Assembly: GCA_000497125.2 (NCBI GenBank)
Contig: CM035324.1
Coordinates: 132,828-196,827, forward strand
DNA length: 64,000 nucleotides
Source: Spironucleus salmonicida
Lineage: Eukaryota > Fornicata > Diplomonadida > Hexamitidae
Reading direction: 5' to 3'
A model generated the notes under the pieces. That model was not told the DNA's origin, did not search any database, and saw nothing but the letters and a program-made list of their open reading frames with translations. A program made the translations under genes and the position numbers. Positions 13,201 through 52,271 of this stretch are shown piece after piece. Within the stretch, counting starts at the first letter, position 1. The number at the start of each line of letters is the position of its first letter.

Positions 13201-13632
13201 ATATATATATAGATAGATAATTTTAGTATTGTATATACATTATTGAGGGCTTTGGTAATGGTACTATATACTACTTTCATTAAAAAATTGCAATAATCCA
13301 TAGAAGCTACTAGTTTACTTAGAGAATGTTTATATTATCACTGTCAAAGTATCATATTTAACCATAAAATTACTTTCATTACGGAAATTGAAATAGAATT
13401 ATATAAAATAAATACAGTATTATGAATAATAATTATAACAAATAGCGTAAAAAGATTTATAAAAATTATTATAATACTATTATTTAACATTTATACTATT
13501 TGTTTAAATTAAAATAATTTTGTATTCTTTGATAATACAAAATAATACAAGTTTATATTATTACTATACTTTCATTTAATATTTTATTAGTATAAAATAT
13601 TTATATTATTTGAATTTTCAACTCCTCTAAAT

Positions 13633-16600
13633 ATGAAATTGACGTTTTATATTTTAAATTAAGAAAGCAATTTGCTGTTTGAGCTTTATGCTACTTTCAC
13701 AGATAACTTATTATAAATAAGTAGTGTTCCAAATTAATACAAAGATTTCCTATAGGATTATAATAATTTAGTGAAAATAAATATTAATACTATTTAAGAT
13801 TTAAAGATTTTCCATGTCTTTTTAGTAATGTATTCACAGAAAATGATATTTAACAATTTTAAATTGAATAAATTTATTATTAATTACTAAATTTATGAAT
13901 GTGAAATTAAAAAATTTAATATTTCTGAACTATGGGCAAACATAGGAATTCTTATATTACATTTAGGTTATAATGTATGTTAGAGTTTATAAGAAGTTAA
14001 ATTTACTCCATAAGCTACTAATTATTTCCATGTTAAAACAAATCTATTTCCTTCTTTTTAATTTTATGAACTGTAAACAGCTTCTGTACCTCTGTTAAGT
14101 TTATCTCCTTTAAATATTACTGTAATTTTATTCAAATATGCTTTGAAACTTAAGGATTAATATAATTCAAGTTTTTTGGCATTTATTTATGGTCTATCTG
14201 CTAATTTTTTAACTTTAACTGATAACAATTAATAATTAAGCAGCACTTAAATTAAATATTTCATGTAATAAGCTGAAAATCTTTATTATAGATCTGATAA
14301 AAACGAAAATATAGTAATGCAAAAAGCGGATAATATATTTCACCTTCCGACTCATTTTTTATTGGATGTCTCTATAGATTTCTTTAAATTTTTATGTATT
14401 CCCTCTTTTATTTTTAAAACGGAGTATTTTATTGTTCAAACGGTTTCTGAAGGAGATCAGCAATAGATTAGTGACATTAAAAATGGAGTTTTAAGTAACA
14501 GTTCCAGATCTGGAAAATCTGTATCTTTGTTATCAACGTATTATTACTATTATTTTTCGCTAAGAAATACAACAATTTATATTTAGTGTGCAGATAAAAA
14601 TTCATAACCAATTTATAATAATTCTAGTTTAAATTACTCAAAAGCTTTATCATTACTTTTTAATTCAGAAAATTATGTCCATGAAGATCTCAAATATTAA
14701 TAAATCTAAGCAAATGTTCGTAAAGAAATAGTTTAGTTATATTAATTGAGCTAACAATTTATTTCATAAAAGATCTATTTATATAGTTATAATTAGCTAT
14801 TTGTTAATAGTTCTTCTATAAATTTTTATTAGTTTTATTATAGATTTTAGAAAAATTTAGATAATTTTTTTAATTTTACTTTATTCAAAATTATAAATTA
14901 TATAAACGAAACCAAAGATTCTTAAACTTATGTCGATAACATTAGTATTGATGAACATGAATAGATATTGAAATACATACTTGATCATTATATTTTTAAC
15001 GCCCATATTATTTATCCAATAGAATCTACTTATAAATAGTTGAAGTTAGATTTTTAGAATAATTAAAATATTTAACTTATTAATGTTAAGCAAATAGTAT
15101 TTATCTTCAATGTATATTAAAACACTATTTTTTGCAATTATTTTGAATAGAAGTAGCTGATACTATTTGACAAAATTATTAATAAGTATATTCTAAAATT
15201 GGAAGGCTATGTCAACTGGTAGGATGAGTAGTATTTATATAGTTAGAATACCTTTAAGTTATAACTGAGAACTAAATAAAAATAGTCTTTATGTAATATA
15301 GTAATAAAATGTAACTAATTTATATTAACTACAAAGGAGGTTATATTAAAAGCAAGTCAAGATACCATAGTAAGCGCTAAAGATAAGTAAGTTTTGGCTA
15401 AGACCCATGACGAATCTTGGAGCACTTAGGAAATATCAACGCTTTTAAATTTATTCCAGTAACTACTAAATATTTGTCCAGATTTTGCCGATAGCAATTT
15501 ACTGTATGATATCCAAAATATTTTAGATTCTTTTAAGGTGGAACCAAATAAATTACAGTTCGCTATATACTTAGATAACATTATAAAAGTTTCCAAACAA
15601 AATAATACTACGTTATATAGCAAAGACACAATCGCGCTGATAGATTACATTGTGGGGTACATTCGTAAATTTGTAGAGGAGAACCAGTAGTCTTTATCAA
15701 CGAAAACCAAAGCCGTGGTTGAACGCTAGGCTTCCAAGGACATTCTCGATCGAGATGAGTCGGAACCGTGGGGAAAACAGAAGATTTTGTCTCTGTTTGC
15801 TCTCCTCAAGTAGTTAGTTGTGTCATGCCCAGACTTCGGAGATTAGGCGCTATTCTAAAGGATAGAGCAGGTGCATTTAGGAGTTTCCTAGTAAAATAAT
15901 GACGTTAAAAATATCGAAAAGATGGCAGACGAAATATCGAAGGTTGAAAATGGACAAGTAAGTTCATAAAGCAAAGACACAATCGCGCTGATAGATTACA
16001 TTGTGGGGTACATTCGTAAATTTGTAGATGACAACAAGCAGCTTTTATCAGAGGACGTTAGAACTATCATTAGAAGTTAGAACTATAAATAAATATTATC
16101 ATAGAAACATAATATATCATTATAATACAATTATATCTACCAATTCATTTTAGTTTGTGTGTCCTGTTATTTTTCAATTTTATCACTAATATTTGGTTAA
16201 AAAATTAAAAAGCAGAGATAATAGAGAAAGAATTATAAATATCATAAAACTACAGCATTAAATATATCAGACCTGTTTGCTCTCCTCAAGTAGTTAGTTG
16301 TGTCATGCCCGGACTTCGGAGATTAGGCGCTATTCTAAAGGATAGAGCAGGTGCATTTAGGAGTTTCCTAGTAAAATAATGACGTTAAAAATATCGAAAA
16401 GATGGCAGACGAAATATCGAAGGTTGAAAATGGACAAGTAAGTTCATAAAGCAAAGACACAATCGCGCTGATAGATTACATTGTGGGGTACATTCGTAAA
16501 TTTGTAGAGGAGAACCAGTAGTCTTTATCAACGAAAACCAAAGCCGTGGTTGAACGCTAGGCTTCCAAGGACATTCTCAATCGAGACGAATCGAAACCGT

Positions 16601-19600
16601 GGGGGAAACAGAAGATTTTGTCTCTGTTTGCTCTCCTCAAGTAGTTAGTTGTGTCATGCCCGGACTTCGGAGATTAGGCGCTATTCTAAAGGATAGAGCA
16701 GGTGCATTTAGGAGTTTCCTAGTAAAATAATGACGTTAAAAATATCGAAAAGATGGCAGACGAAATATCGAAGGTTGAAAATGGACAAGTAAGTTCATAA
16801 AGCAAAGACACAATCGCGCTGATAGATTACATTGTGGGGTACATTCGTAAATTTGTAGATGACAACAAGCAGCTTTTATCAGAGGACGTCAAAGCCGTGG
16901 TTGAAAGCTAGGCTTCCAAGGACATTCTCAATCGAGACGAATCGAAAGCGTGGGGAAAACAGAAGATTTTGTCTCTGTTTGCTCTCCTCAAGTAGTTAGT
17001 TGTGTCATGCCCGGACTTCGGAGATTAGGCGCTATTCTAAAGGATAGAGCAGGTGCATTTAGGAGTTTCCTAGTAAAATAATGACGTTAAAAATATCGAA
17101 AAGATGGCAGACGAAATATCGAAGGTTGAAAATGGACAAGTAAGTTCATAAAGCAAAGACACAATCGCGCTGATAGATTACATTGTGGGGTACATTCGTA
17201 AATTTGTAGAGGAGAACCAGTAGTCTTTATCAACGAAAACCAAAGCCGTGGTTGAACGCTAGGCTTCCAAGGACATTCTCGATCGAGATGAGTCGGAACC
17301 GTGGGGAAAACAGAAGATTTTGTCTCTGTTTGCTCTCCTCAAGTAGTTAGTTGTGTCATGCCCGGACTTCGGAGATTAGGCGCTATTCTAAAGGATAGAG
17401 CAGGTGCATTTAGGAGTTTCCTAGTAAAATAATGACGTTAAAAATATCGAAAAGATGGCAGACGAAATATCGAAGGTTGAAAATGGACAAGTAAGTTCAT
17501 AAAGCAAAGACACAATCGCGCTGATAGATTACATTGTGGGGTACATTCGTAAATTTGTAGATGACAACAAGCAGCTTTTATCAGAGGACGTCAAAGCCGT
17601 GGTTGAAAGCTAGGCTTCCAAGGACATTCTCGATCGAGATGAGTCGGAACCGTGGGGAAATTATCTCTTTCAAAATCTATTTTAACTAATAGATACATTA
17701 TTACACTACATTACTTAATATTTTGAGGGTAAAGATTTTAAAAGTTTGCCTTTAGATATTTCTATGTTTCAGGAATCTGCGGAGTATAAAGTAGTATACT
17801 ATAATAATTTTTGTTAATAAATATACTAGTTTATATTTAATATATAACAGAACAATGATCACCATTCTTGTAATACTAATTTAGTACTTAAAAACTATAG
17901 TGGTTAATTTTATTATACTAGCAATTTAAATATATATCACATCCTTACATAGAGTATAGAATCAGTTATAACCATTAATAGTATATTTTTATCATTTTAT
18001 GATCAAAAGTTAAGTATTTTATAAAGATTAATTTTAATATAAGATTCTAGTTATTTAAAAAATAATATTAAAAACTATGAGAATTTTAATTTTATTATTT
18101 AAGTGTGCTTTAAAGAATTCTCTAAGGTGTCTTCTAATTAAACTTTTTATTGTAGTTCAGCAATTAATATGTTTGATTTATAATTTAAAGTATTCTTTTG
18201 CATAACTATTTTAAAATAAAGTTAATTGGTTACGTTTATAAATAGTCAGTTTTTATAATAGCTAAATGAAATTCTTTTGTAAATCTATAAGGATAAATAA
18301 ATCTATGATGACATAATACAGGTATGTTCAATATATAATGATGTAACTATGTTTATTGAGAGTCAAGCTAATAAAAATTTGTGTAAACTAGCGTAACAGT
18401 GTAGTAGTATAATAATACAGCGAAAACATCAATTTACATAATATGATTCTGAGGTATTTACAGAGTAGGAATCTAATTAAATTTTGACTAAGACCCATGA
18501 CGAATCTTGGAGCACTTAGGAAATATCAACGCTTTTAAATTTATTCCAGTAACTACTAAATATTTGTCCAGATTTTGCCGATAGCAATTTACTGTATGAT
18601 ATCCAAAATATTTTAGATTCTTTTAAGGTGGAACCAAATAAATTACAGTTCGCTATATACTTAGATAACATTATAAAAGTTTCCAAACAAAATAATACTA
18701 CGTTATATAGCAAAGACACAATCGCGCTGATAGATTACATTGTGGGGTACATTCGTAAATTTGTAGATGACAACAAGCAGCTTTTATCAGAGGACGTCAA
18801 AGCCGTGGTTGAAAGCTAGGCTTCCAAGGACATTCTCAATCGAGACGAATCGAAAGCGTGGGGAAAACAGAAGATTTTGTCTCTGTTTGCTCTCCTCAAG
18901 TAGTTAGTTGTGTCATGCCCGGACTTCGGAGATTAGGCGCTATTCTAAAGGATAGAGCAGGTGCATTTAGGAGTTTCCTAGTAAAATAATGACGTTAAAA
19001 ATATCGAAAAGATGGCAGACGAAATATCGAAGGTTGAAAATGGACAAGTAAGTTCATAAAGCAAAGACACAATCGCGCTGATAGATTACATTGTGGGGTA
19101 CATTCGTAAATTTGTAGAGGAGAACCAGTAGTCTTTATCAACGAAAACCAAAGCCGTGGTTGAACGCTAGGCTTCCAAGGACATTCTCGATCGAGATGAG
19201 TCGGAACCGTGGGGAAAACAGAAGATTTTGTCTCTGTTTGCTCTCCTCAAGTAGTTAGTTGTGTCATGCCCGGACTTCGGAGATTAGGCGCTATTCTAAA
19301 GGATAGAGCAGGTGCATTTAGGAGTTTCCTAGTAAAATAATGACGTTAAAAATATCGAAAAGATGGCAGACGAAATATCGAAGGTTGAAAATGGACAAGT
19401 AAGTTCATAAAGCAAAGACACAATCGCGCTGATAGATTACATTGTGGGGTACATTCGTAAATTTGTAGATGACAACAAGCAGCTTTTATCAGAGGACGTC
19501 AAAGCCGTGGTTGAAAGCTAGGCTTCCAAGGACATTCTCAATCGAGACGAATCGAAAGCGTGGGGAAAACAGAAGATTTTGTCTCTGTTTGCTCTCCTCA

Positions 19601-22080
19601 AGTAGTTAGTTGTGTCATGCCCAGACTTCGGAGATTAGGCGCTATTCTAAAGGATAGAGCAGGTGCATTTAGGAGTTTCCTAGTAAAATAATGACGTTAA
19701 AAATATCGAAAAGATGGCAGACGAAATATCGAAGGTTGAAAATGGACAAGTAAGTTCATAAAGCAAAGACACAATCGCGCTGATAGATTACATTGTGGGG
19801 TACATTCGTAAATTTGTAGATGACAACAAGCAGCTTTTATCAGAGGACGTCAAAGCCGTGGTTGAAAGCTAGGCTTCCAAGGACATTCTCAATCGAGACG
19901 AATCGAAAGCGTGGGGAAAACAGAAGATTTTGTCTCTGTTTGCTCTCCTCAAGTAGTTAGTTGTGTCATGCCCAGACTTCGGAGATTAGGCGCTATTCTA
20001 AAGGATAGAGCAGGTGCATTTAGGAGTTTCCTAGTAAAATAATGACGTTAAAAATATCGAAAAGATGGCAGACGAAATATCGAAGGTTGAAAATGGACAA
20101 GTAAGTTCATAAAGCAAAGACACAATCGCGCTGATAGATTACATTGTGGGGTACATTCGTAAATTTGTAGATGACAACAAGCAGCTTTTATCAGAGGACG
20201 TCAAAGCCGTGGTTGAAAGCTAGGCTTCCAAGGACATTCTCGATCGAGATGAGTCGGAACCGTGGGGAAAACAGAAAATTTTGTCTATATTTGCTCTTCT
20301 TGTGCAACTAGTTGTGTTCTATCCAGATTTATAGAAATTTATAGAATTATATATTCAAGCATTATCGAATAAGTCTGAGTAAAAGTATGTTTTATAGAGT
20401 AATAACAATCTTTTATTACTAGTAGACGAAGTTTTGCATTAATAAAATATAAGACGAGAAAAAAATCAAACTAATATTTTAAATAAGTATGAACAATATC
20501 TTAGATTAGATAATCCTTTGGATTATTTGTTGTTATTAGTTTAAAATTCACCATCAATAACACATTAAAGAGATTTAGAAAGTATCAAGAGTCACTATAC
20601 TAATTTGATTACTGAGAATGGTAAGTTTCATGGGTTATTCTTATTCATATAGGAACTATATAATTTAAGATCCATAGAGTCTATATTTTGGAGAAACATC
20701 ACTCATTATTTATAGAATAATCGAAATGGCCAAACAGACTAAATTCTGATTACAAATCAATGTATATATTCTGGAACTGATATGTCCTTATTCAATTTTA
20801 TAAAAGTTAATAAGATTTAGTAACATTTTTATTCTAGCGGAACCTCTTTAGAATATTAACATGGCAGAATTATTGGGTTACCATATCCTCATGTTACATT
20901 ATGCAAATAGTTAAATACTAACTAGGAAATAATTATTGCACTAGCTACGGATGAGTTTTTATAAAGTTATTGTAGATCATTAGCATAAATTAATTATACT
21001 GATTACTATAATATTTAATGTCCTGAAAATTCGTTACTAAAATAACTTTATTTACCACTTATATCGCCATAATTATGGTTATGTCCAAATAAAAGAGAAT
21101 AATCTGTGCAGTTATCTTTCAATTCTTTGACTAAACTAAAAATTAACAATCAATATTCATATTTTATAAATAAATAAAGTTGCTTTAATAAATATTTTGA
21201 AATTAAAAAAGTTAAAACAGCAATCTAATATCATATCAATCTTGAGGAATAGGTGAAATCGACTTTATTAACTACTTCTTCTGGGTATATTAATTTAAAA
21301 TATATTGCAGTGTTTTATTATTTAGTATAACAGCAGTTCGATGAGTTAATTATTAATATCGATATTTTGAGTATAAAATAATTATTAGTTTAATAGAAGC
21401 TTCAATATTTGACAGAAATTAATGCTTTATTATTATTCTTGTATACAATTGTTAAAAATGAAAATGTTTTGTCTAAATTTAAATTGATCTTATAAGAATA
21501 AAAATTGTGTTCAATGTATTTTAGTATTGTCGGTAGCTTTATTTCATAGAGAGAATCAATGGATTTACTAAAAGAGGTATGCTAAGGCTCTAACTTTATA
21601 TTATTACAATAACCTTTTGACGATTTTATTTATGAAAATACTAGTTTCAGTTAATTTTAATAAAATATTCGAGCTTATGGTGTTAATTATTCGAAACTAG
21701 TTTTTGAATCACTAAAGCAAACAAAATAGATAAAAACCTTAATTTGCGCTATCTCTATTGATAAATAGAAGTTTTTTTCTAAATTTTTAAAGATTGACTA
21801 AAAACACCCTGACTTTTTAGTTACTTTTCATGGGTTTGAGGGTCTAGAATAAATAATGAATGTTTAAGATGGAGTTTATTATGTTTCATATGATTCTGGT
21901 AATCATAGCTACGTTGGTTTACATGAAAAAACTAAAAACATTTCTAGGTCTATTATTTAAGTAGGACCAAATTAATCAGATGTTTTGTTGAATTTTTCAG
22001 AAATTAAATTCAATTAGTAATTATTGGTTAAATAAGTAGAGGAACTAAATTAATTTTTGAATAGTCTTAATCAAAAGTGA
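13633..22080 (+). CDS. Giant repeat protein, about 2,815 residues
   Basis: One frame without a single TGA, carrying well over a hundred TAA/TAG codons read as Gln. The first in-frame ATG is 13633 (MKLTFYILNQ) after a TGA at 13423-13425; a later start such as 14317 is possible because the first part is very AT-rich. Architecture: unique N-terminal region (to about residue 590); a degenerate module (DESWSTQEISTLLNLF); six 117-residue modules (about 663-1342), one interrupted by a hydrophobic insert; a unique spacer; the same degenerate module again; five modules (about 1693-2215); and a unique 600-residue C-terminus ending at TGA. A module reads KDTIALIDYIVGYIRKF ... ILSLFALLKQLVVSCPDFGD. It is helical and leucine-rich, loosely like the REJ/polycystin-type helical repeats of large protist membrane proteins, but I cannot assign a family. 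Nothing indicates location except the one membrane-like insert. Confidence 0.85.
15398..17659. repeat. 351-bp coding repeat, block 1
   Basis: Modules start at 15619, 15970, 16450, 16801, 17152 and 17503. All spacings are exactly 351 bp except 15970-16450 (480 bp), where a 200-bp insertion replaces part of a unit. Two variants alternate: A (EENQQSLSTKT...VERQ) and B (DDNKQLLSEDV...VESQ), giving a 702-bp higher-order period. The copies are nearly identical at DNA level, silent sites included. Confidence 0.95.
16069..16275. other. In-frame hydrophobic insert inside the repeat block
   Basis: AT-rich, non-repeat sequence of about 69 codons inside the second module. It encodes a possible transmembrane helix (FILVCVSCYFSILSLIFG) followed by a basic stretch (KIKKQRQQRK). 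The reading frame is kept across both junctions. Confidence 0.6.
18488..20276. repeat. 351-bp coding repeat, block 2
   Basis: Modules start at 18709, 19060, 19411, 19762 and 20113, spaced exactly 351 bp, in order B-A-B-B-B. The 280 bp in front (18488-18767) are identical to 15398-15677 in front of block 1, so block and leader were duplicated together about 3.09 kb apart. Confidence 0.95.
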
Positions 22081-25029: not shown

Positions 25030-28000
25030 ATGTAATCCCTATATCTAGACAATATTATCTAATATCGATTCTCTAATAAGTTTAGACTTATTAACCCTAA
25101 TCCATACAGATTATAAGTAAATTTAGATACTTCTTCTATGCACAAATTCTTTGATATGCATCCATGTTCAGGATAAATTATTGAAATACCAGATAATGAT
25201 ACGTTATATATTTAAACCAATATAAAGCGTTACGTATATCCGTATAAGCGTAAAATTATATCAGAAAATATTTAAATGTAGCACTTTCAGTTATTTTACA
25301 AGTAAATGTATTTTGAACCTTTGACGTTTAATTTTCCTGCACTTAATCCCGAAGTTAGCCCAAAAGATATCAGGATTATTAGTCTTATTAACGAAATAAA
25401 AGATCATTAATTTAATACACTAGTCAAATAATAGTATCAGCTTGTATTAGATGATAAAGTATCATTCCGCCTTTTTATTAATTTTTTCATTTAATAACTT
25501 GCCAAAATTTAGTCTCCTTAAAATTTTACATTTGGGCGCCCTAATTCAGCAAGTGTCGTATAAGCTTTATTCTCCATTGTTGCTAAATAAATTCCGCATG
25601 TATAAGGTGGGAAAGTATTTTAGCCTATTAATTGTTATGAAGTTCTTAATAATGTAAATATTCTCTAACTTAATTAATTCATACCTGAAACCATTAACCT
25701 GGTTAGAATGTCCTGTTTTTGGTCTAGTATTAAAACTTTAGCAGAAGACTACTTGATCAAAAAAAGTAGGTAATATGTTGGGAAATAGCTATTTGTGATA
25801 AAGTAAGATCAGCTAAAAAATAAAGAATATACTAGTTACAACACTGAAGAATTACCATTTTATGTAGAGGAAGATATTGAATTTCATGTTATGAAAAATA
25901 TGATTTCTTAAGGTATAGTACCAACTTAGAATAATATGTTTATTTTACTTAAAAATGGTTACAAAATATAAGACTTAGATACTGCTATAGCGCTTAATGC
26001 CATCGAATTTGAAGGGTAAAATACTGAATTTATCCTTACTCCATAAATGTAAAATCAAATAAACTAAACTGTTGTAGGAAGAGTAGTTTTTATTTAAAGG
26101 TATATTAAGCTTAAAATTGCTTCTAAAAATCCTAAAAAACCTTGTTCAAAAACGACTGATATTCTGTTTAAACAAGAAATTAATTCAAACAATTCTTGCT
26201 AATAATATAAAATAAATCAATTCAATACTTAATTTCGAGATTTTGACGATACTCCGGAGGAAACTAACGAAAATTAAGCTGATTAAGCAATCAATGACGA
26301 TATTTCCCAGCTCACAAATGACATTATTGAAGACGAGGATGAGCTAGATCTCATCCGAAATCAAAATAATGCTTCTTAGGACTCAGTATCTACAACCAGT
26401 ATAAGCAACATCATTAACAACCAGTCGTCATCCGACGAATAGTAGGAAATTTTCAACCAAAACAGCGTCGTTTCGCCGATCAACGATGAAATAAGTCAAA
26501 TTGTAAATAACCAAGATGAAGATATTAACAGCTCATATAATAACTACTTTAACCAGAATCTCAAAACTTCAAATTACTCCCAAAAAACTCAGAATTCAGC
26601 ATCATACCAAAGCGCTTATTCGAGCTATTTTTACGACAATTAATCGTCTCAGCAGCAGCCGTCGGCTCCCGCTACCGAGCTCGCTGCCTCGGCTTTTTTC
26701 GCCACAAAACGCGCAAAATCTGTCACGTTTGCAGACGAAAAAACCGACCAAATCAGCGTTAGCCAGCTCCTGGAATCCGCCGGAAACTTGAAACTCAGCG
26801 GTGTTTCGGGCGAAAACGCGAATTCTGGCCGTTTGGAGCTCGAAAATTTGGTGCGAAAAATCGAGAATTTCGATTTTAGCAGTGAGGAAAATAGTGAGTA
26901 ATTTGGTGAAGAAAATTCTGTGAGTATTAGAACTGATATAACAAAAAGTGAAATTGACGAAATGAGCGAAATTTTGAATCGCTAAAACGGAAGTTGGGAG
27001 GACGGAGAATAAGGGGTTAATTAGGCGGAGAAAGTCAGTAATTACGTGGAAGCGAGCGACGAAATTTCGGATGTTCTGAATAGGGTGTTAGGAGGTGAGG
27101 ATGAAGAAATTAACACAATTTATTAAAATAACAACATTGACCAAAATGACGAATTCAGCGAAATTTTAAATAAGCAAAACTCCGATAACGACGTTTAAAA
27201 CGCAGAAATTTCTGAGCTGATGAACAAAATTTAGAGATTCGAATCTTCCAGTTTTGAAAATGACGAACTCAGCTAGCTGCTTAATAAGCAACAAGAAGCC
27301 AGCGATGAGGATTTTGAGAATAGCGCTAATTTGCGACATGGCGAGCTTGAAAATGGTGAGTTAATAAGCAAAATTCACAGCCCTGGTTCGCAAAATGGAA
27401 AGGTTGAAATTGATGAAAATAATGAAATTTCCGAACTAATAAACAGAATTCACAGCTCTAATTCGAATCCTTCGAATCCAGACCTCTCTGGGTCAATTAT
27501 TCACTAGGAAAATGACAATTTAGCACTAAAAGTAAATATTATATCTGAAACGGTCGATATCTACGCCCCTGAGGTCGTGCTGTCGCAAAATAACGGCAAT
27601 GGTCGCTAACTAGGCAGTGAGAATGAGCAAAATCTGCAGATTAATCCGAATTTTGGAGTCGAAAAATGCGATTTTCCAGCGTCAATTGCAGGGGAAATTG
27701 AAGAAACTAGCAGCAAAACTGATATCTCGAACAAAAAATTCGTGAAGTAAATCGTGAAAATACAGTAAAAAACACGCGAATTTTTGAAAAACCAGCTTCT
27801 GAAAAACGGTCCGTATCAGGCAGAGCTTATAAGCATAGCCACAACGATTATTTAGGCCAACTTCAGGGGTGCAAATATAAGAAAAACTGTTAAATTCGCG
27901 AAATCTCATAATTTATTATATCTTAGTATATAATAATCGCTTAAATCAATTTAAACTGTAGAAAAATTTTACCAAAAAATCCTTTTGGTCAAATCAATTA

Positions 28001-29289
28001 TTATACGTTAATATTACGAAAATTAAGGATTTTTAGTTAACAAAATATTGTCAAAAATTGATATCGAGCCTCTATTATAATTCATCAATGTATATTCGCC
28101 TAAAACTCAACTTTTTACTCTGTAACTTGTTTCCTATTTCGAATCGTAAGTAACTAAAATACAAAATAAATCCCATTCCTTTTTGGCAAAAAAATCGCGC
28201 AAAATTTGTGCCGAAAATTCAGATTTCGAGGTTTCGATTTTTGCGAATTTTTGGGCTCCTTCTAATTTTCCTCAAAAAGTACAAAAAGCACTCAAATCGG
28301 CACTTCTGATTCAGGCAGCTGGGCGGTATTTTCTGCATAAAACCTCTCTCTTGATTTCGAGCGATCTTGCATATCTAGGCCTCCTGCCTTCAGGTGTTAT
28401 TTTGGCGAAAAATGCGTTCCAAAATGCTGCTCAAACAATTTAGAGATTTTTCAGAATTACTAGCGATTTTTAGCTTAGAAAGATATAATAATCAGTATTA
28501 TTGATTTAAAAATTCTACCGCGATTTTAACTTTGATATTAATATTATAAAATAGCATATAATGGCAAATTAAAAATATAAAGTGAAAAAATTAGAATAAC
28601 AAAGGAAAGAACAACTAAATTTTATTATTATTATACAATAATAGATAAGAAATTTGTAAAGGAGTGGTGGAGTTTTTTTATATACTTGTAAATATTATAC
28701 AAATAATTTAACTTTTCCACTCTGGAAAAGCTTCAAGACCATTCAAGCTATCTGCCGAATCCAATCGTCTTACAAAACATTAACATTCCTACAATCTAAC
28801 CAGAATTTGGCTCTCAAAACGCGATAAATCATGCACAGAATAGCATTTCTAAAATCACATCCCAGCGTCTCCTTAACGCTCCATTCCAAGCTGCTCATTC
28901 AGACCGAAAACCCGCAAAAGCATATCCGGAGTCTAAAGATCCTCCAAAAACTAAAAATTCCGTACCACGAAAATCTCATTTCCGCTTTATTAAGTTGTTG
29001 CAAGTTTGATGCTTCGAGGAACTTGGCGATAACAATTTTGGGAGATATTTTGCCGTAGAATTTCGTAGAATTTATCGAATTTGATAGTACTGGCATGGAT
29101 ATAATAAAGTATTGTTTGCTCGAAAAAACTGTAGAATCCGCTCGATTTTTGAAGAATTTGGCGAAATGTCAGCCGCTTGTTGGAGTGGTTTTCGTCCGGG
29201 AAGTGATATAATGGAGGAAAGTTGAGCAAGACGAGGAGGTGCGGAGGCTGCTCAAGGGTGTAGTCTGGTGGAGCGGTGAGAAGAAGTGA
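25030..29289 (+). CDS. Large IQ-motif protein, ASPM-like features
   Basis: 1,419 codons without TGA, with many TAA/TAG Gln codons. The N-terminal 90 residues look like an ASH (ASPM/SPD-2/Hydin) beta-sandwich (INPNPYRLQVNL, MHPCSGQIIEIPD). A middle helical part follows (FWSSIKTLAEDYLI), then a 450-residue acidic Asn/Ser-rich linker with a repeated short motif of type DE-[IFLM]-S-[EDQ]-[IVL]-[LM]-N-[KR]. After that come several IQ-type calmodulin-binding motifs (IIQANFRGANIRK near residue 940; LLIQAAGRYFLHK near 1093; IQRFFR; LLIQKFYRDF; IQAICRIQ near 1236) and an Armadillo-like helical C-terminus (ISALLSCCKFDASRNLAITIL). ASH, IQ and helical tail in this order resemble ASPM, a spindle-pole/basal-body protein, but I see no clear CH domain. 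A role at microtubule organising centres is inference. Confidence 0.75.
26281..27500. repeat. Short linear-motif repeats within the IQ protein
   Basis: At least seven degenerate copies of a ten-residue motif: NDEISQIVN (26491), DEMSEILNR (26959), DEISDVLNR (27058), DEFSEILNK (27154), AEISELMNK (27205), DELSQLLNK (27265), NEISELINR (27421). DNA is diverged, so selection is on protein. Confidence 0.7.
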
Positions 29290-43353: not shown

Positions 43354-43780
43354 GCCGCGGACCCCGGGCGCTGGGCGGGTGCTGGGAAGCGGGCCCGCCC
43401 ATCCCGAGGCGGGCGGTGCGCGAGAAAGATAAAATTCGGCACAGCTCTTTCCCTCGTAGTCTCCCAGCGAAGTACTCAATACTGCCAGGTCAGGCTTCAC
43501 TTCACAATTTGGAACAAGATGTGGTGTTTAACTGACTGTATGACCGAATCGAGAGTACTGGGGCGTGGCCGCGGACCCGGGCGCTGGGCGGGTGCTGGGA
43601 AGCGGGCCCGCCCATCCCGAGGCGGGCGGTGCGCGAGAAAGATAAAATTCGGCACAGCTCTTTCCCTCGTAGTCTCCCAGCGAAGTACTCAATACTGCCA
43701 GGTCAGGCTTCACTTCACAATTTGGAACAAGATGTGGTGTTTAACTGACTGTATGACCGAATCGAGAGTACTGGGACGGC
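43354..43780. repeat. 213-bp minisatellite, two copies at array edge
   Basis: Units start at 43354 and 43568. Each begins GCCGCGGACC and ends with the AGTACTGGGG junction. The first has one extra C. Confidence 0.9.
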
Positions 43781-44195
43781 CGGAAAGAAGGGGCGCCTCG
43801 CGCTGTTACTTTGCGACGCTTCCCGTGAGGCGCTAGCTCGAAGTGGGCCACGAGATGCTTCAGCTACCGCCCTGGGAAGCCAAGGTGAAAGTGCGTGGCT
43901 AAAGTTTGGGACGTACCAAGCCACTACGAAGTGGGAGTGAGACAGCATACTTAGGGGAGGCGCTGTGAAGGCAGATGACGGAGAAGTGACGGCTGCCCTT
44001 TCTAGCGTTTGGTTAGCTTGGGTGCATAGCCTCTGCTGGTAGATTTTGTTATAGGTGCAGTTAGTAAAAGCTAATGCTAGGGCTAGGCAATTAATAGAAT
44101 AAATACTGCCGAAACGTATAAATAAATCATTAGCATAGCTTATCAGCCAGCTAGAGTGGAGGGACGTGAGGGCGCTATAAATCAAGTAGGGTCAC

Positions 44196-45422
44196 TCAGA
44201 TCTCATTCCTCTGCACGAGGGGGAGCTCGGTGTGCATTCTCTGCTTCCTGCTGCGCACGGCGAAGGCCACGACACCGATGACCGCGGTCAGGGCGACGAC
44301 ACCGCCGAGGACGGCACCGATGGTGGCGGCCTGGGAGGCTCTGTTGGCGGGCGCGACGCACTGGTGGGCCTGGAAGAGGTAGCCGGGTCTGCACGCGGCG
44401 CAGTAGCGCTCGTCGCAGGACAGGCACCCCTCGGGGCAGGCGGCGCACTGGCCGGTGGTGGTCTGGCGGAAGCCGACCTCGCACTCGTTGCAGGAGTCGC
44501 CGCTCTGGACCTTGCAGTTGGCGATGCCGCCGGGGACGACTGGTGGAGGCGTGGGAGGGTTCACCGAGCCGCAGGAGCTGGCGTCGGCACAGACCCCGGC
44601 TGGGGTGAGGTAGAAGCCGAGCCCGCAACCGAGGCACTCGGAGGTGCTGCAGATGGCGCAGCCCTCGGCGCAGGGGACGCAGAGCCCGTTGGTGAGGGCG
44701 TGACCGGGGTGGCACACGAGGCAGCCGTCGGCGCCCTCGATCTGACAGGAGTTGGGCTTGGGCACGCATACGTTGTCCTGGACGGCGAGGCCTTCCTTGC
44801 ACACGACGCACTTTTCTTCGTACTGGAAGTCGCAGTTGGCGACGGCGGCGAAGCAGTTGCCGCCCTGCTGGACGAAGCCTGGGATGCAAGTGGTGCAGCC
44901 GGAGGCATCGGAGGATGCGCAGAGGGAAGGGTTGGTGACGCAGGTGTTGTTCATGACGGCGAAGCCCTCGCGGCAGTTGACACACTTCTCCTCGTACTGG
45001 TAGTCGCAGTTCTTCACGCCGGCGTAGCAGTTGCCGTTGGTGTTGGAGTAGCCAGGCTTGCAGCTGATGCAGCCCTCGGGGGTGTTGGTCTCGCAGAAGG
45101 CGGGGTTGGTGACGCACTTGTTGCCGGCGTTGGCCATGCCGTCCTTGCACACGACGCACTTCTCCTCGTACTGGAACTCGCAGTTGGCGACAGCCGCGAA
45201 GCAGTTGCCGTCCTGTTCGACGTGGCCGGGCTTGCAGGTGGCGCAGCCGTCGATGCCCTGAACGGAGCAGAGGGCGGGGTTGGTGACGCACTTGTTGTCG
45301 GCGACGGCGAAGCCCTCGCGGCAGTTGATGCAGGTGGCCTCGTACTGGAACTCGCAGTTCTTGATGTTGGGGATGCAGGTGTTGTTCTCACGGTGGGTGT
45401 TGGTCGGGCAGGTCGCGCTCAT
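44196..45422 (-). CDS. Cysteine-rich membrane protein (VSP-like), array copy 1
   Basis: 408 residues. Four related modules of about 58 residues, each with NC(E/D)(F/Y)QYE--C--C, KCVTNP and GC--CKPG, carry many CxxC pairs (CINC, CATC, CVVC, CISC, CVNC, CTTC, CLVC, CAIC). A Pro-rich spacer (NPPTPPPVVPGG), two more Cys modules, one transmembrane helix (about 366-389) and a 19-residue basic-start tail (RSRKQRM ... QRNEI) follow. This is the plan of diplomonad cysteine-rich surface proteins (VSP/CRP style), probably GPI-free and membrane anchored. I start at MSATCP (45422), preceded by a TATTATAC-containing AT-rich patch; the frame is open for 52 more codons to an ATG at 45578, but that stretch lies in the repeated spacer. 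Neither start shows a signal peptide. Stop TGA; Gln is nearly always CAG. Confidence 0.9.
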   Translation of the reverse strand: MSATCPTNTHRENNTCIPNIKNCEFQYEATCINCREGFAVADNKCVTNPALCSVQGIDGCATCKPGHVEQDGNCFAAVANCEFQYEEKCVVCKDGMANAGNKCVTNPAFCETNTPEGCISCKPGYSNTNGNCYAGVKNCDYQYEEKCVNCREGFAVMNNTCVTNPSLCASSDASGCTTCIPGFVQQGGNCFAAVANCDFQYEEKCVVCKEGLAVQDNVCVPKPNSCQIEGADGCLVCHPGHALTNGLCVPCAEGCAICSTSECLGCGLGFYLTPAGVCADASSCGSVNPPTPPPVVPGGIANCKVQSGDSCNECEVGFRQTTTGQCAACPEGCLSCDERYCAACRPGYLFQAHQCVAPANRASQAATIGAVLGGVVALTAVIGVVAFAVRSRKQRMHTELPLVQRNEI

Positions 45423-45743
45423 TGGTAGTGGAGTGGGCGGGTCGGATCGGGGGTATAATACGGTATTAGGCCGATAATCTATTTCGGGCCGAGTTAGAAT
45501 AGGTGGAGCGGAGTTGGATTGCCTTGGGTATCCGCGCCATCGTGCAGAATACCCGGCCGGGTGGAAGGGCGGACCCATCCCGAGGCGGGCGGTGCGCGAG
45601 AAAGATAAAATTCGGCACAGCTCTTTCCCTCGTAGTCTCCCAGCGAAGTACTCAATACTGCCAGGTCAGGCTTCACTTCACAATTTGGAACAAGATGTGG
45701 TGTTTAACTGACTGTATGACCGAATCGAGAGTACTGGGGCGTG

Positions 45744-46169
45744 GCCGCGGACCCGGGCGCTGGGCGGGTGCTGGGAAGCGGGCCCGCCCATCCCGAGGCG
45801 GGCGGTGCGCGAGAAAGATAAAATTCGGCACAGCTCTTTCCCTCGTAGTCTCCCAGCGAAGTACTCAATACTGCCAGGTCAGGCTTCACTTCACAATTTG
45901 GAACAAGATGTGGTGTTTAACTGACTGTATGACCGAATCGAGAGTACTGGGGCGTGGCCGCGGACCCGGGCGCTGGGCGGGTGCTGGGAAGCGGGCCCGC
46001 CCATCCCGAGGCGGGCGGTGCGCGAGAAAGATAAAATTCGGCACAGCTCTTTCCCTCGTAGTCTCCCAGCGAAGCACTCAATACTGCCAGGTCAGGCTTC
46101 ACTTCACAATTTGGAACAAGATGTGGTGTTTAACTGACTGTATGACCGAATCGAGAGTACTGGGACGGC
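45744..46169. repeat. 213-bp minisatellite, two extra copies
   Basis: Units start at 45744 and 45957, behind a partial unit that is present in every spacer. These make the longest spacer (2389-bp period). Confidence 0.9.
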
Positions 46170-46584
46170 CGGAAAGAAGGGGCGCCTCGCGCTGTTACTT
46201 TGCGACGCTTCCCGTGAGGCGCTAGCTCGAAGTGGGCCACGAGATGCTTCAGCTACCGCCCTGGGAAGCCAAGGTGAAAGTGCGTGGCTAAAGGTTGGGA
46301 CGTACCAAGCCACTACGAAGTGGGAGTGAGACAGCATACTTAGGGGAGGCGCTGTGAAGGCAGATGACGGAGAAGTGACGGCTGCCCTTTCTAGCGTTTG
46401 GTTAGCTTGGGTGCATAGCCTCTGCTGGTAGATTTTGTTATAGGTGCAGTTAGTAAAAGCTAATGCTAGGGCTAGGCAATTAATAGAATAAATACTGCCG
46501 AAACGTATAAATAAATCATTAGCATAGCTTATCAGCCAGCTAGAGTGGAGGGACGTGAGGGCGCTATAAATCAAGTAGGGTCAC

Positions 46585-47811
46585 TCAGATCTCATTCCTC
46601 TGCACGAGGGGGAGCTCGGTGTGCATTCTCTGCTTCCTGCTGCGCACGGCGAAGGCCACGACACCGATGACCGCGGTCAGGGCGACGACACCGCCGAGGA
46701 CGGCACCGATGGTGGCGGCCTGGGAGGCTCTGTTGGCGGGCGCGACGCACTGGTGGGCCTGGAAGAGGTAGCCGGGTCTGCACGCGGCGCAGTAGCGCTC
46801 GTCGCAGGACAGGCACCCCTCGGGGCAGGCGGCGCACTGGCCGGTGGTGGTCTGGCGGAAGCCGACCTCGCACTCGTTGCAGGAGTCGCCGCTCTGGACC
46901 TTGCAGTTGGCGATGCCGCCGGGGACGACTGGTGGAGGCGTGGGAGGGTTCACCGAGACGCAGGAGCTGGCGTCGGCACAGACCCCGGCTGGGGTGAGGT
47001 AGAAGCCGAGCCCGCAACCGAGGCACTCGGAGGTGCTGCAGATGGCGCAGCCCTCGGCGCAGGGGACGCAGAGCCCGTTGGTGAGGGCGTGACCGGGGTG
47101 GCACACGAGGCAGCCGTCGGCGCCCTCGATCTGGCAGGAGTTGGGCTTGGGCACGCATACGTTGTCCTGGACGGCGAGGCCTTCCTTGCACACGACGCAC
47201 TTTTCTTCGTACTGGAAGTCGCAGTTGGCGACGGCGGCGAAGCAGTTGCCGCCCTGCTGGACGAAGCCTGGGATGCAAGTGGTGCAGCCGGAGGCATCGG
47301 AGGATGCGCAGAGGGAAGGGTTGGTGACGCAGGTGTTGTTCATGACGGCGAAGCCCTCGCGGCAGTTGACACACTTCTCCTCGTACTGGAAGTCGCAGTT
47401 CTTCACGCCGGCGAAGCAGTTGCCGTTGGTGTTGGAGTAGCCAGGCTTGCAGCTGATGCAGCCCTCGGGGGTGTTGGTCTCGCAGAAGGCGGGGTTGGTG
47501 ACGCACTTGTTGCCGGCGTTGGCCATGCCGTCCTTGCACACGACGCACTTCTCCTCGTACTGGAACTCGCAGTTGGCGACAGCCGCGAAGCAGTTGCCGT
47601 CCTGTTCGACGTGGCCGGGCTTGCAGGTGGCGCAGCCGTCGATGCCCTGAACGGAGCAGAGGGCGGGGTTGGTGACGCACTTGTTGTCGGCGACGGCGAA
47701 GCCCTCGCGGCAGTTGATGCAGGTGGCCTCGTACTGGAACGCGCAGTTCTTGATGTTGGGGATGCAGGTGTTGTTCTCACGGTGGGTGTTGGTCGGGCAG
47801 GTCGCGCTCAT
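46585..47811 (-). CDS. Cysteine-rich membrane protein, array copy 2
   Basis: As copy 1, the most different full copy: CAFQYE in module 1, CFAG and CDFQYE at module 3, and CVSV instead of CGSV before the Pro-rich spacer. All cysteines are kept. Confidence 0.9.
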   Translation of the reverse strand: MSATCPTNTHRENNTCIPNIKNCAFQYEATCINCREGFAVADNKCVTNPALCSVQGIDGCATCKPGHVEQDGNCFAAVANCEFQYEEKCVVCKDGMANAGNKCVTNPAFCETNTPEGCISCKPGYSNTNGNCFAGVKNCDFQYEEKCVNCREGFAVMNNTCVTNPSLCASSDASGCTTCIPGFVQQGGNCFAAVANCDFQYEEKCVVCKEGLAVQDNVCVPKPNSCQIEGADGCLVCHPGHALTNGLCVPCAEGCAICSTSECLGCGLGFYLTPAGVCADASSCVSVNPPTPPPVVPGGIANCKVQSGDSCNECEVGFRQTTTGQCAACPEGCLSCDERYCAACRPGYLFQAHQCVAPANRASQAATIGAVLGGVVALTAVIGVVAFAVRSRKQRMHTELPLVQRNEI

Positions 47812-48547
47812 TGGTAGTGGAGTGGGCGGGTCGGATCGGGGGTATAATACGGTATTAGGCCGATAATCTATTTCGGGCCGAGTTAGAATAGGTGGAGCGG
47901 AGTTGGATTGCCTTGGGTATCCGCGCCATCGTGCAGAATACCCGGCCGGGTGGAAGGGCGGACCCATCCCGAGGCGGGCGGTGCGCGAGAAAGATAAAAT
48001 TCGGCACAGCTCTTTCCCTCGTAGTCTCCCAGCGAAGTACTCAATACTGCCAGGTCAGGCTTCACTTCAAAATTTGGAACAAGATGTGGTGTTTAACTGA
48101 CTGTATGACCGAATCGAGAGTACTGGGACGGCCGGAAAGAAGGGGCGCCTCGCGCTGTTACTTTGCGACGCTTCCCGTGAGGCGCTAGCTCGAAGTGGGC
48201 CACGAGATGCTTCAGCTACCGCCCTGGGAAGCCAAGGTGAAAGTGCGTGGCTAAAGGTTGGGACGTACCAAGCCACTACGAAGTGGGAGTGAGACAGCAT
48301 ACTTAGGGGAGGCGCTGTGAAGGCAGATGACGGAGAAGTGACGGCTGCCCTTTCTAGCGTTTGGTTAGCTTGGGTGCATAGCCTCTGCTGGTAGATTTTG
48401 TTATAGGTGCAGTTAGTAAAAGCTAATGCTAGGGCTAGGCAATTAATAGAATAAATACTGCCGAAACGTATAAATAAATCATTAGCATAGCTTATCAGCC
48501 AGCTAGAGTGGAGGGACGTGAGGGCGCTATAAATCAAGTAGGGTCAC

Positions 48548-49774
48548 TCAGATCTCATTCCTCTGCACGAGGGGGAGCTCGGTGTGCATTCTCTGCTTCC
48601 TGCTGCGCACGGCGAAGGCCACGACACCGATGACCGCGGTCAGGGCGACGACACCGCCGAGGACGGCACCGATGGTGGCGGCCTGGGAGGCTCTGTTGGC
48701 GGGCGCGACGCACTGGTGGGCCTGGAAGAGGTAGCCGGGTCTGCACGCGGCGCAGTAGCGCTCGTCGCAGGACAGGCACCCCTCGGGGCAGGCGGCGCAC
48801 TGGCCGGTGGTGGTCTGGCGGAAGCCGACCTCGCACTCGTTGCAGGAGTCGCCGCTCTGGACCTTGCAGTTGGCGATGCCGCCGGGGACGACTGGTGGAG
48901 GCGTGGGAGGGTTCACCGAGCCGCAGGAGCTGGCGTCGGCACAGACCCCGGCTGGGGTGAGGTAGAAGCCGAGCCCGCAACCGAGGCACTCGGAGGTGCT
49001 GCAGATGGCGCAGCCCTCGGCGCAGGGGACGCAGAGCCCGTTGGTGAGGGCGTGACCGGGGTGGCACACGAGGCAGCCGTCGGCGCCCTCGATCTGGCAG
49101 GAGTTGGGCTTGGGCACGCATACGTTGTCCTGGACGGCGAGGCCTTCCTTGCACACGACGCACTTTTCTTCGTACTGGAAGTCGCAGTTGGCGACGGCGG
49201 CGAAGCAGTTGCCGCCCTGCTGGACGAAGCCTGGGATGCAAGTGGTGCAGCCGGAGGCATCGGAGGATGCGCAGAGGGAAGGGTTGGTGACGCAGGTGTT
49301 GTTCATGACGGCGAAGCCCTCGCGGCAGTTGACACACTTCTCCTCGTACTGGTAGTCGCAGTTCTTCACGCCGGCGTAGCAGTTGCCGTTGGTGTTGGAG
49401 TAGCCAGGCTTGCAGCTGATGCAGCCCTCGGGGGTGTTGGTCTCGCAGAAGGCGGGGTTGGTGACGCACTTGTTGCCGGCGTTGGCCATGCCGTCCTTGC
49501 ACACGACGCACTTCTCCTCGTACTGGAACTCGCAGTTGGCGACAGCCGCGAAGCAGTTGCCGTCCTGTTCGACGTGGCCGGGCTTGCAGGTGGCGCAGCC
49601 GTCGATGCCCTGAACGGAGCAGAGGGCGGGGTTGGTGACGCACTTGTTGTCGGCGACGGCGAAGCCCTCGCGGCAGTTGATGCAGGTGGCCTCGTACTGG
49701 AACTCGCAGTTCTTGATGTTGGGGATGCAGGTGTTGTTCTCACGGTGGGTGTTGGTCGGGCAGGTCGCGCTCAT
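48548..49774 (-). CDS. Cysteine-rich membrane protein, array copy 3
   Basis: As copy 1 at protein level (CYAG, CDYQYE). Differs from copy 1 by a silent CTGGCAGG/CTGACAGG site and one base in the promoter-proximal spacer (TTCAAAATTTGG). Confidence 0.9.
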   Translation of the reverse strand: MSATCPTNTHRENNTCIPNIKNCEFQYEATCINCREGFAVADNKCVTNPALCSVQGIDGCATCKPGHVEQDGNCFAAVANCEFQYEEKCVVCKDGMANAGNKCVTNPAFCETNTPEGCISCKPGYSNTNGNCYAGVKNCDYQYEEKCVNCREGFAVMNNTCVTNPSLCASSDASGCTTCIPGFVQQGGNCFAAVANCDFQYEEKCVVCKEGLAVQDNVCVPKPNSCQIEGADGCLVCHPGHALTNGLCVPCAEGCAICSTSECLGCGLGFYLTPAGVCADASSCGSVNPPTPPPVVPGGIANCKVQSGDSCNECEVGFRQTTTGQCAACPEGCLSCDERYCAACRPGYLFQAHQCVAPANRASQAATIGAVLGGVVALTAVIGVVAFAVRSRKQRMHTELPLVQRNEI

Positions 49775-50095
49775 TGGTAGTGGAGTGGGCGGGTCGGATC
49801 GGGGGTATAATACGGTATTAGGCCGATAATCTATTTCGGGCCGAGTTAGAATAGGTGGAGCGGAGTTGGATTGCCTTGGGTATCCGCGCCATCGTGCAGA
49901 ATACCCGGCCGGGTGGAAGGGCGGACCCATCCCGAGGCGGGCGGTGCGCGAGAAAGATAAAATTCGGCACAGCTCTTTCCCTCGTAGTCTCCCAGCGAAG
50001 TACTCAATACTGCCAGGTCAGGCTTCACTTCACAATTTGGAACAAGATGTGGTGTTTAACTGACTGTATGACCGAATCGAGAGTACTGGGGCGTG

Positions 50096-50308
50096 GCCGC
50101 GGACCCGGGCGCTGGGCGGGTGCTGGGAAGCGGGCCCGCCCATCCCGAGGCGGGCGGTGCGCGAGAAAGATAAAATTCGGCACAGCTCTTTCCCTCGTAG
50201 TCTCCCAGCGAAGTACTCAATACTGCCAGGTCAGGCTTCACTTCACAATTTGGAACAAGATGTGGTGTTTAACTGACTGTATGACCGAATCGAGAGTACT
50301 GGGACGGC
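50096..50308. repeat. 213-bp minisatellite, one extra copy
   Basis: Same unit as at 45744; gives the 2176-bp period. Confidence 0.9.
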
Positions 50309-50723
50309 CGGAAAGAAGGGGCGCCTCGCGCTGTTACTTTGCGACGCTTCCCGTGAGGCGCTAGCTCGAAGTGGGCCACGAGATGCTTCAGCTACCGCCC
50401 TGGGAAGCCAAGGTGAAAGTGCGTGGCTAAAGGTTGGGACGTACCAAGCCACTACGAAGTGGGAGTGAGACAGCATACTTAGGGGAGGCGCTGTGAAGGC
50501 AGATGACGGAGAAGTGACGGCTGCCCTTTCTAGCGTTTGGTTAGCTTGGGTGCATAGCCTCTGCTGGTAGATTTTGTTATAGGTGCAGTTAGTAAAAGCT
50601 AATGCTAGGGCTAGGCAATTAATAGAATAAATACTGCCGAAACGTATAAATAAATCATTAGCATAGCTTATCAGCCAGCTAGAGTGGAGGGACGTGAGGG
50701 CGCTATAAATCAAGTAGGGTCAC

Positions 50724-51950
50724 TCAGATCTCATTCCTCTGCACGAGGGGGAGCTCGGTGTGCATTCTCTGCTTCCTGCTGCGCACGGCGAAGGCCACGA
50801 CACCGATGACCGCGGTCAGGGCGACGACACCGCCGAGGACGGCACCGATGGTGGCGGCCTGGGAGGCTCTGTTGGCGGGCGCGACGCACTGGTGGGCCTG
50901 GAAGAGGTAGCCGGGTCTGCACGCGGCGCAGTAGCGCTCGTCGCAGGACAGGCACCCCTCGGGGCAGGCGGCGCACTGGCCGGTGGTGGTCTGGCGGAAG
51001 CCGACCTCGCACTCGTTGCAGGAGTCGCCGCTCTGGACCTTGCAGTTGGCGATGCCGCCGGGGACGACTGGTGGAGGCGTGGGAGGGTTCACCGAGCCGC
51101 AGGAGCTGGCGTCGGCACAGACCCCGGCTGGGGTGAGGTAGAAGCCGAGCCCGCAACCGAGGCACTCGGAGGTGCTGCAGATGGCGCAGCCCTCGGCGCA
51201 GGGGACGCAGAGCCCGTTGGTGAGGGCGTGACCGGGGTGGCACACGAGGCAGCCGTCGGCGCCCTCGATCTGACAGGAGTTGGGCTTGGGCACGCATACG
51301 TTGTCCTGGACGGCGAGGCCTTCCTTGCACACGACGCACTTTTCTTCGTACTGGAAGTCGCAGTTGGCGACGGCGGCGAAGCAGTTGCCGCCCTGCTGGA
51401 CGAAGCCTGGGATGCAAGTGGTGCAGCCGGAGGCATCGGAGGATGCGCAGAGGGAAGGGTTGGTGACGCAGGTGTTGTTCATGACGGCGAAGCCCTCGCG
51501 GCAGTTGACACACTTCTCCTCGTACTGGTAGTCGCAGTTCTTCACGCCGGCGTAGCAGTTGCCGTTGGTGTTGGAGTAGCCAGGCTTGCAGCTGATGCAG
51601 CCCTCGGGGGTGTTGGTCTCGCAGAAGGCGGGGTTGGTGACGCACTTGTTGCCGGCGTTGGCCATGCCGTCCTTGCACACGACGCACTTCTCCTCGTACT
51701 GGAACTCGCAGTTGGCGACAGCCGCGAAGCAGTTGCCGTCCTGTTCGACGTGGCCGGGCTTGCAGGTGGCGCAGCCGTCGATGCCCTGAACGGAGCAGAG
51801 GGCGGGGTTGGTGACGCACTTGTTGTCGGCGACGGCGAAGCCCTCGCGGCAGTTGATGCAGGTGGCCTCGTACTGGAACTCGCAGTTCTTGATGTTGGGG
51901 ATGCAGGTGTTGTTCTCACGGTGGGTGTTGGTCGGGCAGGTCGCGCTCAT
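50724..51950 (-). CDS. Cysteine-rich membrane protein, array copy 4
   Basis: Protein identical to copy 1 by inspection, with the CTGACAGG silent variant. Confidence 0.9.
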   Translation of the reverse strand: MSATCPTNTHRENNTCIPNIKNCEFQYEATCINCREGFAVADNKCVTNPALCSVQGIDGCATCKPGHVEQDGNCFAAVANCEFQYEEKCVVCKDGMANAGNKCVTNPAFCETNTPEGCISCKPGYSNTNGNCYAGVKNCDYQYEEKCVNCREGFAVMNNTCVTNPSLCASSDASGCTTCIPGFVQQGGNCFAAVANCDFQYEEKCVVCKEGLAVQDNVCVPKPNSCQIEGADGCLVCHPGHALTNGLCVPCAEGCAICSTSECLGCGLGFYLTPAGVCADASSCGSVNPPTPPPVVPGGIANCKVQSGDSCNECEVGFRQTTTGQCAACPEGCLSCDERYCAACRPGYLFQAHQCVAPANRASQAATIGAVLGGVVALTAVIGVVAFAVRSRKQRMHTELPLVQRNEI

Positions 51951-52271
51951 TGGTAGTGGAGTGGGCGGGTCGGATCGGGGGTATAATACGGTATTAGGCC
52001 GATAATCTATTTCGGGCCGAGTTAGAATAGGTGGAGCGGAGTTGGATTGCCTTGGGTATCCGCGCCATCGTGCAGAATACCCGGCCGGGTGGAAGGGCGG
52101 ACCCATCCCGAGGCGGGCGGTGCGCGAGAAAGATAAAATTCGGCACAGCTCTTTCCCTCGTAGTCTCCCAGCGAAGTACTCAATACTGCCAGGTCAGGCT
52201 TCACTTCACAATTTGGAACAAGATGTGGTGTTTAACTGACTGTATGACCGAATCGAGAGTACTGGGGCGTG

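What the first reader, a model, noticed from the sequence alone, without database searches (positions are those of the whole stretch)
13633..22080. A hidden 2,815-codon gene with exact coding repeats
Not one TGA occurs in frame over 8.4 kb of AT-rich DNA, through unique, repeated and inserted segments. This cannot be chance. Standard ORF calling shows only 60-residue fragments. The family is not recognised and the protein may be new.
Basis: seen in the sequence. Interest (0 to 1): 0.85.

Follow-up and report, generated by a model that had tools for sequence, protein, structure and literature searches.

The report
Giant NTPase-like protein, variable helical insert
A salmon-parasite gene that reads through 196 apparent stop codons encodes a 2,815-residue member of an uncharacterised protein family that looks like an ATP- or GTP-using enzyme, with a repeat array of changeable length set between its two nucleotide-binding motifs; the gene looks real, the enzyme role is unproven.

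Summary
Window 13633-22080 (+) is one TGA-free frame of 2,815 codons with 116 TAA and 80 TAG; about 42-48 in-frame TGA are expected by chance. The organism is the diplomonad Spironucleus salmonicida, so TAA/TAG=Gln is its ordinary code. The gene belongs to a family with about 49 loci in this genome, 29 within 70 kb of a chromosome end. The public relatives returned are named only 'hypothetical' or 'uncharacterized'. New here: of 37 entries compared, 34 of 34 that span the region carry a Walker-A-like motif and 35 of 36 a Walker-B-like motif; in the subgroup with this gene, 117-residue helical repeats lie between them. The spacing is 161-225 residues without an array, then 479, 1062, 1511 and 1973. 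Divergent paralogues show purifying selection, dN/dS 0.26-0.36. The near-copy on chromosome 1 has one complete unit. Best reading: a lineage-specific P-loop-NTPase-like family with a recombinationally variable helical arm. The P-loop fold was not confirmed, no P-loop profile matches, and Walker A lacks its first glycine.

The parts
13591..13598 (+). TATA-like sequence upstream of the start
   Evidence: the genome paper reports a TATA-box motif in the promoter regions of 80.7% of genes, with the AT peak at -60 to -20.
13619..13627 (+). C-rich element CAACTCCTC just upstream of the start codon
   Evidence: Located; a C-rich motif about 10 bp upstream of the start is described for 16.7% of S. salmonicida genes (PMC3916229 section 10). 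The paper's 11-nt logo was not seen, so the match is by position and character only.
13633..22080 (+). the gene: 2,815-codon frame, code 6, ending in TGA
13633..15381 (+). unique N-terminal region, residues 1-583, conserved in the family
   Evidence: dN/dS 0.36 against the chromosome 8 and the chromosome 7 paralogue.
14497..14520 (+). Walker-A-like motif NSSRSGKS, residues 289-296
   Evidence: The first position is N, Q or A in the family, not the canonical G.
15382..17721 (+). first repeat array: units at 15382 and 15733, a truncated unit at 16261-16563, units at 16564, 16915 and 17266, a partial unit from 17617
   Evidence: Unit starts; profile hits (i-E 1e-37 to 2e-48 for the six units; the profile was built partly from these units).
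16081..16260 (+). AT-rich in-frame insert in the array, with the most hydrophobic 19-residue stretch of the protein at 16135-16191
   Evidence: a similar insert occurs twice in one chromosome 8 copy.
17722..18471 (+). divergent middle segment between the two arrays, no clear unit match
   Evidence: best there i-E 0.19; no blastn match to the rest of the gene.
18472..20421 (+). second repeat array: units at 18472, 18823, 19174, 19525 and 19876, partial unit from 20227
20407..20445 (+). Walker-B-like motif NLLLLVDEVLHQQ, residues 2259-2271, right behind the array
20662..20691 (+). conserved block NLRSIESIFW (family pattern N.R..E..FW)
   Evidence: Invariant columns N708, R710, E713, F716, W717 in the 10-row alignment A1; located.
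20773..20799 (+). conserved GTD block (GTDMSLFNF)
   Evidence: Invariant G820 T821 D822 in A1; located.
20437..22077 (+). conserved C-terminal region up to the stop
   Evidence: dN/dS 0.26 versus the chromosome 7 paralogue.

Best explanation
A functional gene of Spironucleus salmonicida for a giant, probably intracellular protein of an unnamed P-loop-NTPase-like family. Shown: the open frame, the code, the family, purifying selection between divergent paralogues, two conserved motifs, and an array of variable length placed between them. Inferred: the motifs bind and hydrolyse a nucleotide; the N- and C-terminal parts fold together into one NTPase core; the helical-bundle array loops out between Walker A and Walker B as an arm or multivalent spacer whose movement is coupled to the nucleotide cycle; the array grows and shrinks by recombination between near-identical units, so arm length differs even between closely similar genes.
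For: Frame and statistics. Homology of N- and C-terminal parts across groups. Walker-A-like motif in 34 of the 34 entries that span it and Walker-B-like motif in 35 of the 36 that span it, the exception being P0019 (37 entries, namely 13 genome ORFs or ORF pieces and 24 window or database proteins, partly redundant; one duplicate of P0001 left out). Spacing 161-225 residues in 28 entries, then 479, 1062, 1511 and 1973 in the 4 group A entries that span both motifs. The repeat profile finds units in the group A entries and none in the 6 tested sequences of groups B, C, D and P0021. Selection: dN/dS 0.26-0.36 in 4 divergent comparisons; a fifth had saturated dS. Array turnover: the chromosome 1 near-copy is 93.4% (2.59 kb) and 94.4% (2.08 kb) identical in DNA but holds one complete unit, closest to the first unit here, plus a partial one, closest to the last. 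Repeat model: helices only, mean pLDDT 77.8.
Against: The AlphaFold2 model of a compact relative's core has mean pLDDT 57.7 and stays under 50 over most of the stretch holding both motifs, so no P-loop fold is shown. No PDB match is significant for either model. No P-loop family was matched by P0001 or 4 relatives or, at E up to 10, by 8 Walker-A blocks, whose best hit was an unrelated phage DNA-binding family at E 0.0031 in 2 of 8. The first glycine of Walker A is replaced by N, Q or A; P0019 lacks the Walker-B pattern. The repeat model has only pTM 0.61. dS above 1.3 is near saturation, so dN/dS is rough; three recent pairs give 0.17 to 0.77 on 5 to 28 differences, and some pairs of repeat units give 1.4 to 1.9 on 15-18 differences. 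No expression evidence.
Confidence: 0.55

Rival explanations
1. A real and selected giant repeat protein, but not an NTPase: the SGK[ST] and DE motifs serve another purpose, and the repeats form a structural scaffold.
For: No fold or profile support for a P-loop; the first Walker-A glycine is missing.
Against: Two motifs of the right kind and order, conserved across groups that are only about 22-24% identical to each other.
Confidence: 0.33
2. A subtelomeric selfish or effector-like family comparable to the Crinkler-RHS type proteins (P-loop NTPase plus nuclease, multicopy).
For: About 49 loci, 29 within 70 kb of chromosome ends and 6 on small contigs; a P-loop NTPase with a nuclease domain accounts for slightly more than a quarter of CR C-termini (PMC5289972, passages seen).
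Against: No Crinkler or RHSP Pfam match in P0001 or 4 relatives; the genome-wide search was silent, but so were its controls. No signal-peptide-like start seen by eye; no nuclease recognised.
Confidence: 0.15
3. A decaying gene whose frame survives by chance or recent birth.
For: Sister copies on chromosomes 1 and 7 appear as two frames each.
Against: 0 TGA in 2,815 codons, purifying selection between divergent paralogues, promoter-like elements.
Confidence: 0.04
4. Several adjacent genes or a spliced gene, not one protein.
For: The public model of the chromosome 8 relative begins at an internal Met behind the Walker-A part.
Against: Continuous frames in three paralogues (C9, C8a, C8b); only four introns are reported genome-wide; removing the GT...AG stretch around the chromosome 9 insert would shift the frame (read by eye).
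Confidence: 0.06

Closest known systems
S. salmonicida hypothetical proteins SS50377_27793, SS50377_27325, SS50377_21281 and 20 further entries (e.g. SS50377_20005, SS50377_25606)
   Same: Homologous; the first three are group A with the same kind of repeats, the 20 others were found with a family profile and share the motifs.
   Different: No described function; none of those returned is the 2,815-aa protein; the 6 non-A sequences tested have no repeat unit.
SMC / Rad50 ATPases (recalled, no call)
   Same: A long helical insert separates Walker A from Walker B.
   Different: Here the insert is built of repeated helical segments (model), not a known coiled coil; no SMC profile match; the ABC signature was not sought.
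KAP P-loop NTPases (recalled, no call)
   Same: Extra segment placed between Walker A and Walker B.
   Different: KAP inserts are transmembrane helices (recalled); here one clearly hydrophobic stretch stands out; no KAP profile match.
Crinkler-RHS type proteins
   Same: Multicopy proteins, often with a P-loop NTPase; RHSPs of trypanosomes are counted among them (PMC5289972, passages seen).
   Different: No Crinkler, RHSP or nuclease profile found.

Membership tests
P-loop NTPase superfamily | Walker A, G-x(4)-G-K-[ST] | tested here: inconclusive
   GK[ST] in 34 of 34 entries spanning the region, but the first position is N, Q or A.
P-loop NTPase superfamily | Walker B, hhhhD[E] | tested here: met
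   hh[VS]DE pattern in 35 of 36 entries spanning the region; P0019 lacks it.
P-loop NTPase superfamily | alpha/beta P-loop fold with both motifs at one site | tested here: inconclusive
   Model of the compact relative under pLDDT 50 over most of that part; Foldseek and VIA-align gave nothing usable.
P-loop NTPase superfamily | match to a P-loop profile | tested here: not met
   No P-loop family among Pfam hits for P0001 and 4 relatives or 8 Walker-A blocks at E up to 10; none in NCBIfam for 3 sequences.
SMC / Rad50 | SMC/ABC profile match | tested here: not met
   No such Pfam family for P0001 and 4 relatives.
SMC / Rad50 | ABC signature motif and hinge | not tested
   No call made.
Crinkler-RHS (CR) proteins | Crinkler header or RHSP profile | tested here: inconclusive
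   No match in P0001 or 4 relatives nor in the own genome, but the genome searches were also silent in their 14 controls.
Crinkler-RHS (CR) proteins | C-terminal nuclease or other effector domain | tested here: inconclusive
   No profile hit; no significant fold match.
KAP NTPases | KAP profile match | tested here: not met
   No KAP hit for P0001 and 4 relatives.
KAP NTPases | transmembrane helices between Walker A and Walker B | tested here: inconclusive
   One strongly hydrophobic 19-residue stretch (mean Kyte-Doolittle 2.1) in one insert of P0001; the next value in that region is 1.78. No TM predictor was run.

The most novel reading that the evidence does not exclude
A new P-loop NTPase family in which nature varies, gene by gene, the length of a repeat-built helical arm inserted between Walker A and Walker B (no unit, then 1, 6, 9 and 11 full or nearly full units in the group A members with both motifs in one frame), giving a ready-made length series for testing how arm length affects a Rad50/SMC-like or lever-like nucleotide machine.
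Probability: 0.4. Interest if true: 0.75.

Novelty: new variant of a known kind. Interest (0 to 1): 0.52.

Why it matters
If the NTPase reading is right, an unnamed family of about 49 loci in a fish parasite is an NTPase family that the profile libraries searched here miss, and group A offers natural arms of different length on related cores. Even if it is not, the case shows a coding array of 11 full or nearly full units in one copy and one in another whose flanking DNA is 93-94% identical, and that at least one public gene model of this family starts behind a conserved motif.
Full report
Observation. The frame 13633-22080 (+) translates under table 6 into 2,815 residues without internal stop. 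It holds 116 TAA and 80 TAG against 35 CAA and 45 CAG, and its only TGA is the terminal one. Expected in-frame TGA are 48 by a first-order estimate and 42 in second-order simulation, 0 of 300 runs without TGA. The unique N- and C-terminal parts alone give 0 TGA against about 10 expected each, 0 of 300 runs each. The middle unique part (11 of 300) and one array stretch (2 of 300) are weaker on their own. Standard ORF calling finds nothing over 67 aa.

Organism and code. The window lies in a 14.47-Mb, 37-contig genome. The reference assembly is 14.7 Mb in 42 scaffolds (PMC9509377, parts 1 and 2 of 3 read). That this diplomonad uses TAA/TAG=Gln is recalled; in the window the papain-like, DnaJ-like and 1,419-codon frames also hold TAR codons (23, 16 and 76), and the first two match Pfam when read so.

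Start of the gene. Upstream of ATG 13633 lie a C-rich element at 13619-13627 and a TATA-like sequence at 13591, like the elements reported for this species (PMC3916229 section 10; other passages of that paper). By eye, the chromosome 7 paralogue and the chromosome 1 near-copy have a similar C-rich stretch; in the two chromosome 8 copies it is less clear.

Family. The N-terminal 576 residues match one near-copy on chromosome 1, one gene on chromosome 7 and two inverted copies on chromosome 8, with weaker partial matches on chromosomes 6 and 8. The C-terminal part gives 43 matches, including more distant loci. The Walker-A block of one group B member gives 50 matches, which I count as 49 loci because two adjacent matches on C7 are taken as one; the tool calls such counts lower bounds. 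Of these, 29 lie within 70 kb of a contig end of chromosomes 1-8, 6 on small contigs, and 14 are internal or on C9, whose length I did not have. Searches with a group C and a group A block gave 49 and 48 matches. Nine ORFs outside group A were compared; they are 1,482-1,835 aa long, four of them cut by the end of the fetched stretch. BLAST shows N- and C-terminal homology between groups, mostly at about 21-35% identity.

Motifs. Of 38 entries read, one duplicate of P0001 was left out. All 34 of the remaining 37 that span the region carry a Walker-A-like motif, [NQA][SP]S[RK]SGK[ST], so the canonical first glycine is absent. Of 36 that span the second region, 35 carry hh[VS]DE; P0019 does not. 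In the 28 entries without an array the two motifs are 161-225 residues apart. In group A they are 479 (P0024), 1062 (C8a), 1511 (C8b) and 1973 (this gene) apart, because the array sits between them: 1, 6, 9 and 11 full or nearly full units. None of the 6 B, C, D and P0021 sequences tested has a unit. This is the main new point. The resemblance to Rad50/SMC and KAP architecture is recalled, not tested.

Selection and turnover. Divergent paralogues give dN/dS of 0.26 to 0.36 in four comparisons with dS 1.3-1.6; a fifth had saturated dS. Recent pairs give 0.17, 0.66 and 0.77 on 5, 28 and 8 differences and say little. Among 21 pairs of 7 repeat units in this gene, ratios run from 0.14 to 1.87 and three pairs are identical; the values above 1 all involve the units at 16915 and 18823, a second unit type that alternates with the first, on 14-18 differences each. 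Diversification between unit types is therefore not excluded. The chromosome 1 near-copy is 93.4% identical over 2.59 kb and 94.4% over 2.08 kb of DNA; its array is one complete unit closest to the first unit here and a partial one closest to the last. Either an expansion here or a collapse there, by recombination between units, explains this.

Annotation. SS50377_27793 equals residues 564-2346 of the continuous chromosome 8 frame, so its public model lacks the Walker-A part. For this gene no public protein was returned; pieces of other lengths were not searched, so its annotation remains open.

Limits. The core model failed: mean pLDDT 57.7, below 50 over most of the stretch holding both motifs (22 sequences in the alignment). 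Foldseek found nothing at E 0.001 or better. No P-loop family profile was matched. The NTPase reading rests on motif pairing and conservation only. No expression data were available. Papers were searched by six locus tags and by topic without a listing that describes this family; that covers only the held open-access library.

Verdict. A real, selected gene of a family for which I found no description, most likely an NTPase with a variable helical arm; that last step is inference with about even odds.

Noticed in passing
window 43431-62496: 16 5S rRNA genes on the minus strand, interspersed with nine 460-codon frames; the three compared are 99-100% identical, 11% Cys, with a hydrophobic C-terminal stretch. 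This fits the published chromosome 9 5S array and cysteine-rich membrane protein arrays (PMC9509377).
   Followed up: partly
window 62926-63864: A 312-codon variant in the same array that shares its ends with the 460-codon frames but differs inside.
   Followed up: no
window 16081-16260; L029: In-frame AT-rich inserts with a hydrophobic stretch followed by basic residues at a similar place in the repeat, in this gene and twice in one chromosome 8 copy. Origin and role unexplained.
   Followed up: partly
window 25030-29289: A second long table-6 frame, 1,419 codons with 76 TAR, no Pfam match, no similarity to the 14 family sequences tried, with a C-rich stretch upstream by eye.
   Followed up: partly
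L028 and L029 (chromosome 8, about 157-163 kb and 175-182 kb): Two group A genes in inverted orientation, nearly identical at their ends but with different repeat number, 1,897 and 2,346 codons.
   Followed up: partly
G000:C6 near 8 kb: A family match inside a reported open stretch of 2,742 aa, not examined.
   Followed up: no
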